DNA from: Bacteroidia bacterium
Lineage (GTDB): Bacteria; Bacteroidota; Bacteroidia; 2-12-FULL-35-15
Assembly (NCBI GenBank): GCA_030654175.1
Contig: JAURXZ010000033.1
Span: 62,001 to 126,000, forward strand
Direction: 5' to 3'
Length of the DNA stretch: 64,000 nt
The notes beneath the pieces were generated by a model. The model ran no database searches, was not told where the DNA came from, and saw only the letters and a program-made list of their open reading frames with translations. Position numbers and translations under genes: made by a program. This document shows, in pieces, positions 992-6,392 of the stretch (positions are counted from its first letter, which is position 1; each line of letters begins with the position of its first letter).

Positions 992-3900
992 TTACAATTC
1001 CATTAATTCCAATTCCAACATCAATGCTTCAGCCTCCAGTTCCATTTCAATTGCATCAGGAACAAATGGCTTTGATTTGTTTACTTTCAATATTACTTCC
1101 TCCTGGCCCTGAGATTTTTTAAACGCTTCTACATCTTTTTTTATCACATCAAAAATATTTTGATTGACCGTTACTGAGGTGTTAAATTTATTTTGCAAAA
1201 TATCAATGAACTTGTCAATGTTTTGATGCTCTACATAAGCTCTCATAGTGTCGCTTATCAGATCAAAATTGTTATTATTCACAACTTCCAAAATCTCTTT
1301 GTTAAGAAACAACCAACCGCCTTGTTTCTTCGTGCCTTTTACCATTACCACCAAATCCCCTTTGATATTCATGGTAAGTGAAACATTGTTGGTAGTAGAA
1401 ACTATTGCACCCGGCTGAACACTTTTGATGTATTTTTTTGCAGCTCCGATTGGAACGGTTACTTTGTTTGCGTTTTCTCCAATTTCCGGATTATAGTTTT
1501 CAGGTAAATAAATTCCTTTTAATATCTCTCCTTTTTTAAGAGTTGTATAACTGATCAGTTTTCCTTTGGTGGTTGAAAATGCCTGTAATAGATTTCCTGT
1601 AACAATGTACCGGATATTACGATTCACATTTTTAGTCTTAACTATTTCGTCCCAATTTTCTAAAATAGATCTGCTTTCATTGGAGGTTAGATTTGTAGAA
1701 GCTCCAATGATAGATTGCAGCTTTAATCCGGTTTCTCCGGATGCAGGTAATTCAATGTATTTATTGCTATCTCCTAATGCGAATTTAAAACCTACCGAAC
1801 TTGGCGCGTAAGGATTTTTACGGTTAAGATCAATTTCTATTCCTAAAAATATGGCTTTTGTAAATGTTTGATTTCCTTCACCAAATGTTATAGATGGATA
1901 GTTTATACCACGTCCTACATAATAGAAATTAAAGAATGACATTAAGTACTGCTTGTTATTTTCGGCTTTAGTTTCAATGTTTTGGCTCTCTTTTGATTTT
2001 GCTTTTTCAAGGTCGTCAATTCTTGCAGCGATCATCATTTTTCTTTCATTTTGATTCACGATTTTTTTAATCGCTTTTTCTTCAGGTACTTTTGCGATCA
2101 GATCACTATAACGCGAATCATTTTCGCGTAAGTCCTCTTTTAATTTATTGGCAATGTAGGTTTCGTACCCATCCAACATTTCACGCTGCATTACTTCCGG
2201 CTCAGTACCTTTTAGTACGTCATTTAGTTTTTGTTGAATTTCCTTTTTTGAAAATGGTTTTTTCAAAACGTTCGCATATACCTTTTGCAAGATGGTATCG
2301 TGCCCAAATGCGCTTTTGCCTCCTTTACCGGATTTTAATATGGTAGTTTCAATAACTTCCGCTTGCAAATCCATTGCTTCCACTTCCAAATCATATTCGC
2401 CTGTTTGCTTTAAATACTCAACACGTTTATTATACCTCAGTACGATTTCATTATAAAATTCGGCTTGCATTTTTGTTGACAATACCGCAACGCGCCCGGA
2501 CACTTTTTGAGCTGCATTCTCAATAAAATTGTTTTCGTTTTTACTATCCGCTTCACTTTCATTCAATTTCAATGGATCATCAATAAGCATATTTAAACTT
2601 TGCTTATTACTTTTATCGTTATTCTCAATCAAATATTCCCTTACCACTCTGTCCCCGATCTTATTAAGAAAGTCCTCTGATGTTAAAATTTTATCCGATT
2701 GTTTTTGATTTGAAGTAGTGTTTGCATTCAATGATTTCAATTTCTTTTGCATCATCATAAACAAACGCTTTTCGGCAGGTATTGCTGAACTGATGTATTT
2801 GTATTCGGGTTTCAAAATTTGCCCGGTACGATTCACTCTACCCATCTTTTGAACCTGCGTATTAACATCAAGCTCCATTTGTAAACCAGTGAAAACTCTT
2901 TGCTTTACCTGATCGCGACTAACTTTATTAGTGGCTATTGCGTGTGCTGATGCGCCTGTACTCCCTGATTGATTAATCATTAAACAATCCACCTCATTAT
3001 TATTAAATTGAGCAAAGGCATCGTTTGTATTGATTCTTTTGCGTTTTGTAATAACTCCCTGAAAGCGTTTTATCATTGCTTTGCTTTCGTCAATTAAACC
3101 TAAAAAACGATTGAATTTATTTTTACGTACCGGGCAATTGCAACCGCTTAAATTTTGGACAGTTTGTCCATTTTGTCCGACAGTTTGTCCAGATTGTTCA
3201 TCGTAACCGCCTTTTGTTTTAATGATAATGTTCATTGGCTTTGGTATAAAATAAAAATCCAATTCCACTCCAAACATTTTATTGATTCTAACACTTTGAA
3301 TTTCTTTCAGGCTTGTATAACCATATTCAGCGTTTTGTGTATCACCATTCAGGATAGCATATCCGTAAATAGTATCCTGTCCATCCCACTCAAGAACATA
3401 CCAATCCGAACCACCTATAAAGAAGTGAGCTTTTGCAACTGCAAATTCTGAAAACTTAATTGGCTGTTCGTGTTTTGGTAATTTATTTTTGTATAAGCCA
3501 TACGCTTTATCGGTAGAATAAAGTTTTGGTATTTCATCCACTTGTTTGTTTAACCGTTCTATGATTTCATGTAACTCTGCATTACCAATGATGGCAGATT
3601 GCTGAATTTTGGGCATCAACTTTTTTAACCTGGGGGAAAGGTCGCTGATCTGTATTCCGTTTTTTGATTTTGATTTTACCGGCTTTGCATCAAAATCTGA
3701 AACTAAATTTAATTGCAGCTCATATTTGCGCCCGGTAACTTCCACAACCGAAAACCCTGCCTTCCGGATTTTCTGAATGATATAATCAATAGGGGATATG
3801 CTGATGCCTGTACTAACCTTTTCAATTTTCTCCTGAATAGCCATGTACTTTATTTTTGCATCCGGGGAAAGATCAGAAATAGGAATAGTTTTGTAAGTGC

Positions 3901-5369: not shown

Positions 5370-6392
5370 TTATTTTTTAAAATTCATTAGCTCCAGTTCC
5401 AAAGCCAACGCCTCCGCTTCCAATTCAAAAGCTGAAGTAAAGTCGTTTTTGTCTGTAAGATCTCGATCAATATATTTTGCAACCCGGTTGTATAATTCTT
5501 CGAAAGAATAAACCGTATAATCACTTTCCGGATTGTAAAATGGTGGAAAACCTCCCGGTACTTTTTTACGTCCGGATATTAATATCAATCGTGTATTAAA
5601 TGCAGTTCCCTGACGGCTGTATAATTTATGCCCATCAATGTTAATGCAGTCCACTACATTATAGTATTTATGCAGATATACAAAAAAGTTCCTGTTTTTT
5701 CCAGCTTGTATTCTGCCTTTATCGTCCCATGCAGTATGCCCTCCAATTATAAGTGCTGCACTTCCATTATCTTTCATTGTGTCCAATGCCCGGATGCACA
5801 TAACATGATCTAATACCGTAAATTCAAACTCATTTAATTTAACAGGTTCAACCTTTCCGAATGGGGGATTGGTAATAATTGCATCAAAGGATTTAATGAA
5901 AGGGAAAGGTTTTGTTGCATCCTGATCGTAAACTTTGAAAAAACCTTGTTCCTTCAAATTGCTCCTACGAACATCGTCAATTTCATTTACTGCGAAATTG
6001 TGAGCTTCGGATGCAATGGTTAAAAGTCCGTTACCTGCGGATGGTTCAAAATAAAAACCTTCTTTATCCATTCCACAGAATACACCTGCAATAAAGCCGA
6101 TAGGGGCAGGGGTTGAATATTGCTGCAATAGCATACTTTGGGAAGTCCGGTGGGAAAGTGTTACCTGTTTGTTATAAAGTTCAACAATACTCATGTAACG
6201 ATCATAAACAGGTAAAGCGCGCAGGGACAATCTGCGCGCTTCTAAAACTATGGCAAGTTCTGTAAATTCTTTTACGGTATTTTTATCGGTGATTCCAAAT
6301 GATGCAGCAATGCGCTCAACTGATGTTTTATTGTGCTTAACATCGTTGGCCAAATCTTGGCGCATACGTTGTATAAATTCCTGCTTTTGCAT
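5370..6392 (-). CDS. N6-adenine DNA methyltransferase (DarB methylase-half-like)
   Basis: Motif I FEPSAGNGLL and motif IV ITNPPFGK; directly upstream of the helicase (4-bp gap). Confidence 0.85.
   Translation of the reverse strand: MQKQEFIQRMRQDLANDVKHNKTSVERIAASFGITDKNTVKEFTELAIVLEARRLSLRALPVYDRYMSIVELYNKQVTLSHRTSQSMLLQQYSTPAPIGFIAGVFCGMDKEGFYFEPSAGNGLLTIASEAHNFAVNEIDDVRRSNLKEQGFFKVYDQDATKPFPFIKSFDAIITNPPFGKVEPVKLNEFEFTVLDHVMCIRALDTMKDNGSAALIIGGHTAWDDKGRIQAGKNRNFFVYLHKYYNVVDCINIDGHKLYSRQGTAFNTRLILISGRKKVPGGFPPFYNPESDYTVYSFEELYNRVAKYIDRDLTDKNDFTSAFELEAEALALELELMNFKK

What the first reader, a model, noticed from the sequence alone, without database searches (positions are those of the whole stretch)
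992..6392. Split DarB-like methylase + helicase pair sharing a C-terminal acidic Leu/Glu tail
The methylase ends in ...FELEAEALALELELMNFKK and the helicase in ...EMELEAEALMLELELMEL. Two unrelated catalytic proteins, adjacent and co-oriented, end in nearly the same ELEAEALxLELELM peptide. P1 DarB (methylase-helicase) is packaged in the virion and injected to protect against type I restriction. A common terminal tail could be a virion-packaging or partner-docking tag for a two-subunit anti-restriction complex.
Basis: partly seen in the sequence, partly recalled or inferred. Interest (0 to 1): 0.8.

Follow-up and report, generated by a model that had tools for sequence, protein, structure and literature searches.

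The report
Shared address tag on phage anti-restriction proteins
A little-known family of probably tailless proviruses in Bacteroidota puts the same short C-terminal peptide on several unrelated DNA-modifying proteins, and each virus uses its own version of that peptide, so it looks like an address tag, most likely for loading these proteins into the virus particle.

Summary
The methylase (5370-6392, -) and the strawberry-notch helicase (992-5365, -) are unrelated but end in ELEAEALALELELM and ELEAEALMLELELM; 20,000 shuffles never matched this. The tail is a conserved portable tag. All but one of 120 helicase homologues end in it. The same scaffold ends an SNF2-type helicase, a ~130-216-aa protein, an LPD1 protein and a C5-methylase, but 0 of 254 backbone proteins. 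Its sequence differs strongly between elements (acidic, RIAKAKAK, RAKAIxIxQKQ, RARAIILKKK, RKRKFxFKLKLQLQL), yet methylase and helicase of one element share one dialect (permutation p = 2e-5). Codons differ even where residues are identical, so selection rather than recent copying holds them together. In 85 fused proteins the C-terminal copy is always kept; the internal copy survives in 20, which disfavours methylase-helicase docking. The host elements are one family of ~20-kb proviruses: predicted single-jelly-roll capsid-like protein (nearest solved fold SPV1), lysozyme, RadA-like ATPase; 63 of 396 Bacteroidia genomes have the ATPase. The tail is most likely a cargo-loading address tag for anti-restriction enzymes, analogous to the P1 DarB capsid-targeting sequence. 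Packaging and the receptor are inferred, not shown.

The parts
992..5365 (-). Strawberry-notch type SF2 helicase/translocase, 1457 aa (PF13872, PF13871; DUF2958-like insert at residues 638-708)
995..1042 (-). C-terminal tag of the helicase, ELEAEALMLELELMEL
   Evidence: conserved in 119/120 homologues
5370..6392 (-). N6-adenine DNA methyltransferase of the polyvalent (DarB-like) type, 340 aa, with NPPF motif
   Evidence: AF2 model pLDDT 87
5373..5426 (-). C-terminal tag of the methylase, ELEAEALALELELMNFKK; modelled as a helix after a low-confidence linker
1..915 (-). 5' part of a 608-aa protein (ends 0.9 kb outside the window): two basic helical repeats plus a C-terminal RadA/RecA-like ATPase; the constant neighbour downstream of the tagged cassette
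9753..10523 (-). GH19-type endolysin
10527..11351 (-). Backbone protein with N-terminal membrane segment (p274 family)
11554..12684 (-). Backbone protein, 275-390-aa acidic family
12697..13083 (-). Backbone protein, p128 family
13480..13872 (-). Backbone protein, p130a family
14020..14733 (-). Capsid-like protein: predicted single jelly roll with N-terminal helices, 237 aa
   Evidence: AF2 pLDDT 81; Foldseek best solved structure SPV1 6oj0, E 4e-5
14859..15461 (-). Lys-rich backbone protein with membrane segment
15526..17769 (-). Large backbone protein (p747 family)
17766..18311 (-). Small membrane-anchored backbone protein
1..20396 (.). Part of the provirus inside the window (core about 21.3 kb, C5:61081-82396, by homology to the copy in a congeneric genome)

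Best explanation
The tail is an address tag. Each provirus of this family carries a cassette of DNA-modifying and anti-restriction proteins (cargo) between its lysis genes and its ATPase gene. Each tagged cargo polypeptide ends in a short helix-forming peptide built on the scaffold X-L-X-A-X-A-[LI]-x-[LI], with X mostly Glu or mostly Lys/Arg. The tagged cargo of one element presents one dialect to one element-encoded partner, and partner and tags change together as elements diverge. The most likely result of binding is loading of methylase, helicase and other cargo into the (predicted tailless, jelly-roll capsid) particle, so that they enter the next cell with the DNA and modify or protect it against restriction, as DarB does for phage P1. 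Shown here: the tags, their conservation, dialect co-variation, selection on the peptide, restriction to cargo, and the shared provirus backbone. Inferred: a single partner, packaging, injection and anti-restriction function.
For: 119 of 120 helicase homologues end in the tail, including many with the rest diverged to about 40% identity. A scan of 264 Gb of genome DNA with the core pattern returned 116 stretches; nearly all are C-terminal tails or the methylase-helicase linker, in two unrelated helicase families plus a small third family. Dialects are shared within elements: pPP10 RAKAIMILQKQ/RAKAILILQAQ, UViG_3300010167_001182 RLRIAKSKAVAKLK/RLRIAKAKAKAKLK, three proteins of G281, LKLRARAIILKKKRAR twice in G509 and RKRKFxFKLKLQLQL twice in G650. 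Permutation on regions chosen without regard to similarity: 19 elements, mean score 49.5 against 30.3, p = 2e-5; 9 with separate genes, 62.7 against 35.0, p = 6e-5. Codons differ at 10/16, 9/13, 8/15 and 8/13 identical residues. General pattern: 0 of 254 backbone proteins and 32 of 1435 other ORFs, all 32 of them cargo proteins. Fused proteins keep the C-terminal copy in 85/85 and the internal copy in 20/85. The proteobacterial homologues read lack it. Backbone with capsid-like protein, lysozyme and ATPase in the same elements. The 30 N-terminal residues of P1 DarB suffice for capsid targeting (PMC9024508).
Against: No particle, proteome or binding data exist. The partner was not found: net charge of backbone families does not invert between acidic- and basic-tag elements, apart from a weak uncorrected signal for p128 (p = 0.02). 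The jelly-roll match is moderate (TM 0.38/0.48) and sequence searches find no capsid relative. Some cassette proteins (the Eco57I-like methylase and RadC-like protein beside the SNF2-type helicase) have no obvious tail, and D12-methylase cassettes have only weak versions. L221 and L225, with methylase and helicase, do not show a matching pair.
Confidence: 0.6

Rival explanations
1. Partner docking: the tails of methylase and helicase bind each other (homotypic helix pairing) and hold a two-subunit anti-restriction enzyme together; there is no packaging role.
For: The two tails are nearly identical and co-vary. In many relatives the two enzymes are fused into one chain.
Against: Fused proteins do not need docking yet keep the C-terminal tail in 85/85 and lose the linker copy in 65/85. 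A third protein (LPD1, G281) and a C5-methylase carry the tag. Identical all-Glu or all-Lys helices would be expected to repel each other.
Confidence: 0.15
2. The common partner is the neighbouring RadA-like ATPase or another intracellular element protein: the tag recruits cargo to replicating or incoming element DNA in the infected cell, without virion packaging.
For: The ATPase family lies next to the tagged cassette in most loci, for both helicase types, and its helical repeats are strongly basic.
Against: The repeats stay basic in elements with basic tags. The tag is confined to the class of proteins known from other phages to be injected.
Confidence: 0.2
3. C-terminal degron: the tail (often ending ...LLAA, like an ssrA tag) sends surplus cargo to ClpXP or another host protease.
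For: Many Chitinophagaceae-type tails end in LLAA.
Against: Many tails end in NF, EL, EF, NFKK or LNM; dialects differ between elements of the same bacterial class; the tag also sits internally before further domains.
Confidence: 0.04
4. No function as a tag: a recently duplicated low-complexity end spread by gene conversion.
For: Low-complexity look; in L191 only 1 of 12 codons for identical residues differs.
Against: Elsewhere a third to two thirds of such codons differ while residues are held; deep conservation over several protein families.
Confidence: 0.01

Closest known systems
Phage P1 DarB and its capsid-targeting sequence (PMC9024508)
   Same: Methylase-helicase anti-restriction protein; a short terminal peptide targets cargo to the particle.
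   Different: P1 is a tailed phage and the DarB signal is N-terminal. Here the peptide is C-terminal, shared by unrelated cargo and different in each element, and the helicase of the window is strawberry-notch type.
Phage T4 internal-protein capsid targeting sequence (IPIII, as cited in PMC9024508)
   Same: Portable peptide that directs internal proteins into the head, from which they are injected.
   Different: Tailed phage, N-terminal (own knowledge); no dialect co-variation known to me.
Polyvalent proteins, DNA methylase-helicase dyad (Iyer et al. 2017, PMC5512222)
   Same: The methylase, the helicases, and the LPD and PBECR fusions seen in relatives belong to this class.
   Different: No shared terminal tag is described in the passages read; the peptide strings occur in no held paper.
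Single-jelly-roll tailless viruses (SPV1; Simuloviridae, PMC12642351)
   Same: The best solved-fold match of the capsid-like protein is SPV1; temperate elements of similar size.
   Different: SPV1 and Simuloviridae infect archaea; no sequence similarity; the elements here reside in Bacteroidota and their conserved ATPase is RadA-like.

Membership tests
DarB-like methylase-helicase dyad of polyvalent proteins | EcoKI/TaqI-like N6-adenine methylase with NPP(Y/F) | tested here: met
   NPPF present in the methylase; PHROG methyltransferase hits; criteria from PMC5512222
DarB-like methylase-helicase dyad of polyvalent proteins | SF2 (SWI2/SNF2 clade) helicase fused or adjacent | tested here: met
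   Strawberry-notch subtype, adjacent here and fused in relatives
DarB-like methylase-helicase dyad of polyvalent proteins | Present in virions and protects DNA in cis from type I restriction | not testable with these tools
   needs particles and plating tests
Capsid-targeting sequence | Short portable terminal peptide on several cargo proteins | tested here: met
Capsid-targeting sequence | Necessary and sufficient for entry into the capsid | not testable with these tools
   needs fusion and deletion experiments
Tailless single-jelly-roll virus | Jelly-roll major capsid protein | tested here: inconclusive
   Predicted jelly-roll-like fold, SPV1 best PDB hit E 4e-5, TM 0.38/0.48; not seen in particles
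Tailless single-jelly-roll virus | FtsK/A32-type packaging ATPase | tested here: not met
   Conserved ATPase is RadA/RecA-like; A32 hit only marginal in one member
Caudoviricetes prophage | Terminase, portal, HK97 capsid, tail genes | tested here: not met
   None among the element proteins scanned with Pfam and PHROGs; not every small ORF was scanned

The most novel reading that the evidence does not exclude
An undescribed family of tailless proviruses of Bacteroidota loads a swappable set of anti-restriction enzymes into its particles through a C-terminal address tag whose sequence is private to each virus, so that tag and receptor co-evolve as lock and key (including reversal of charge) and co-resident proviruses do not load each other's cargo.
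Probability: 0.45. Interest if true: 0.88.

Novelty: new variant of a known kind. Interest (0 to 1): 0.78.

Why it matters
How phages choose which proteins to carry in the particle is known for very few model phages. Here the tag itself can be read from sequence, marks cargo across several enzyme families, and predicts which proteins a virus should inject.

Tried and rejected
Searches with the window methylase in genome contigs and viral contigs by back-translated peptides found nothing; a DNA pattern for the tail worked instead. A basic-tail pattern in 396 Bacteroidia genomes found none, probably too strict; protein searches found the other dialects. A receptor with inverted charge was looked for among the backbone families and not found, except for a weak p128 signal that does not survive correction. 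Attachment-site repeats and tRNA genes at the element ends: none convincing. Bacteroides phage BS-TP4, the best phage hit of the helicase, carries a 5391-aa polyvalent protein without a recognisable tag. Degron and gene-conversion ideas are scored as rivals; a T4SS-signal idea was dropped because no conjugation genes were recognised in the elements read. The ATPase was considered as an A32-type packaging ATPase; the profile search says RadA/RecA-like. Prophage fF4 of Flavobacterium, which surfaced in the literature search, is a transposable myovirus and not this family.

Full report
Observation. The methylase and helicase are adjacent, co-oriented and unrelated, and their C-termini share a 14-residue peptide that differs at one position. 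Of 87 other ORF ends on the contig none scores above 33 against the helicase tail (observed 57), and no shuffle of 20,000 reaches the observed score. The core occurs at only these two places in the genome as an exact pattern.

Conservation. Of 120 helicase homologues, all but one end in a recognisable version of the tail, although the residues just before it are poorly conserved. Methylase homologues end in it too, or in a basic version, or carry it between the methylase and a further domain: the helicase, LPD domains or a PBECR nuclease. In the fused proteins the order is methylase, tag, helicase, tag. Homologues in Acinetobacter phage MD-2021a and a Vogesella plasmid have no such tail, so the tag is not part of the helicase fold.

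Other carriers. Nearly all are ORF ends or the methylase-helicase linker. About a quarter belong to a second helicase, 1223 aa, SNF2 type with PF00176/PF00271, whose PHROG hits include DarB-like antirestriction. A small protein of 127-216 aa directly upstream of it bears the tag as well. In genome G281 a 672-aa LPD1 protein shares the dialect of its neighbours, and in G422 a C5-methylase fragment does.

Dialects. The tag sequence varies widely between elements but little within them. Examples, methylase then helicase: window ELEAEALALELELM / ELEAEALMLELELM; pPP10 RAKAIMILQKQL / RAKAILILQAQV; UViG_3300010167_001182 RLRIAKSKAVAKLKVLELL / RLRIAKAKAKAKLKMLNLL; G509 LKLRARAIILKKKRAR in both; G650 ARKRKFAFKLKLQLQL / ARKRKFVFKLKLQLQL; G085 KLLKLKANALLLIE / KLLKLKAKALLLLE. 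A first permutation used tails picked by eye. To avoid selecting look-alike stretches, the residues after the end of the methylase domain were then compared with the last 45 residues of every helicase: within-element mean 49.5 against 30.3 for shuffled partners, p = 2e-5 for 19 elements; 62.7 against 35.0, p = 6e-5 for the nine with separate genes. Elements are not fully independent, so these p-values are approximate. Elements whose linker copy has decayed contribute nothing to the signal. Synonymous codons have diverged although the residues agree, so the peptides are held alike by selection. L191 is an exception and may reflect recent copying.

One tag per chain. In 85 fused methylase-helicases the C-terminal copy is present in 85 and the linker copy in 20. 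The list came from a search that included the tail region, which biases a little towards tail-bearing hits, but the contrast is too large to be explained by that. It is what a tag read by an outside partner predicts, and the opposite of what a docking device between the two enzymes predicts.

Where it occurs. Seven backbone families were collected from all elements by iterative profiles. A general tag pattern matches the last 30 residues of 0 of 254 backbone proteins and of 32 other ORFs; every one of these is a methylase, helicase or LPD1 protein of the cassette.

The element. The window copy spans about 21.3 kb, C5:61081-82396, by comparison with its relative in a congeneric genome. Gene order is conserved with the Persicobacter plasmid pPP10 and many integrated copies: membrane-anchored small protein, 500-750-aa protein, Lys-rich protein, 237-280-aa protein, three ~130-aa proteins, an acidic 275-390-aa protein, a membrane protein, lysozyme, accessory genes, tagged cassette, ATPase, and in several copies a tyrosine or serine recombinase. 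The 237-aa protein folds in AlphaFold2 as a beta sandwich behind N-terminal helices (pLDDT 81); the best solved match is the SPV1 capsid, followed by plant-virus jelly rolls, with PRD1 P3 and P5 lower in the list. No terminase, portal or tail protein was seen. I therefore read the elements as proviruses of a tailless, jelly-roll virus; this is a prediction. The constant neighbour of the cassette is a protein with two basic helical repeats and a RadA-like ATPase. That ATPase family is found in 63 of 396 Bacteroidia genomes. The window's genome has four such elements (C5, C31, C44, C6). The C6 element has quite different cargo, a C5-methylase and a D12 N6-methylase, whose ends share SIKN-[LI]-[TS]-[LV] and a final AA, a weak version of the same theme.

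Structure of the tag. In the methylase model the catalytic domain is confident, the linker is not (pLDDT about 45), and residues 310-338, which include the tag, are modelled as a helix of moderate confidence.

Mechanism. The evidence fits a cargo address tag: a free C-terminal helix on each cargo chain, recognised by one element-specific partner. Packaging into the particle is the most economical purpose, since the cargo is the class of protein that P1, T4 and others inject, and P1 DarB is directed to the capsid by its terminal 30 residues (PMC9024508). The partner is unknown; charge comparison did not reveal it. Intracellular recruitment by the ATPase remains possible.

Comparison and novelty. 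The enzymes belong to the known polyvalent class (PMC5512222). I found no description of the tag or of this provirus family in the open papers held; subscription journals were not searched. As a sorting tag it is a variant of a known kind, with new features: C-terminal position, use on several unrelated cargo families, and private dialects that reverse charge between elements.

Noticed in passing
window 1-20396 (G000:C5:61081-82396) and loci L126, L190-L210, L219-L264: A family of ~20-kb proviruses/plasmids of Bacteroidota with a predicted single-jelly-roll capsid-like protein and RadA-like ATPase; tag patterns for it return only 2 and 1 contigs in IMG/VR, so it seems to be missed by virus catalogues.
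   Followed up: partly
G000 C5, C31, C44, C6 (L193, L194, L243, L244): Four proviruses of this family in one genome, with different anti-restriction cassettes (methylase + strawberry-notch helicase; two fused versions; C5-methylase + D12 methylase).
   Followed up: partly
P0002, P0003, P0004, P0011 (methylase homologues): In relatives the methylase is followed in the same chain by PBECR nuclease or LPD domains, so a predicted RNase domain rides behind the tag position.
   Followed up: no
window 1-915 and alignment A3: The ATPase has two copies of a basic helical repeat (IKRYxxxxGKxKTKxxxLxFINxLQKAIxEKRIRKxSPYAK) ahead of the RadA-like domain; its function is unknown and in some elements it is split into two genes.
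   Followed up: partly
window 12697-13083 and p128 family: p128 is more acidic in basic-tag elements (-5.5 against -2.5 charges per 100 aa, p = 0.02 uncorrected); a weak lead for the receptor.
   Followed up: partly
window 8687-9685: Ala-rich 332-aa protein of low complexity next to the lysozyme, possibly a spike or fibre protein.
   Followed up: no
L251 and L252 cassettes: 632-aa and 854-aa cassette proteins of another type with ALAELELLKMELELK / ELLKMEMELK near, not at, the C-terminus.
   Followed up: no
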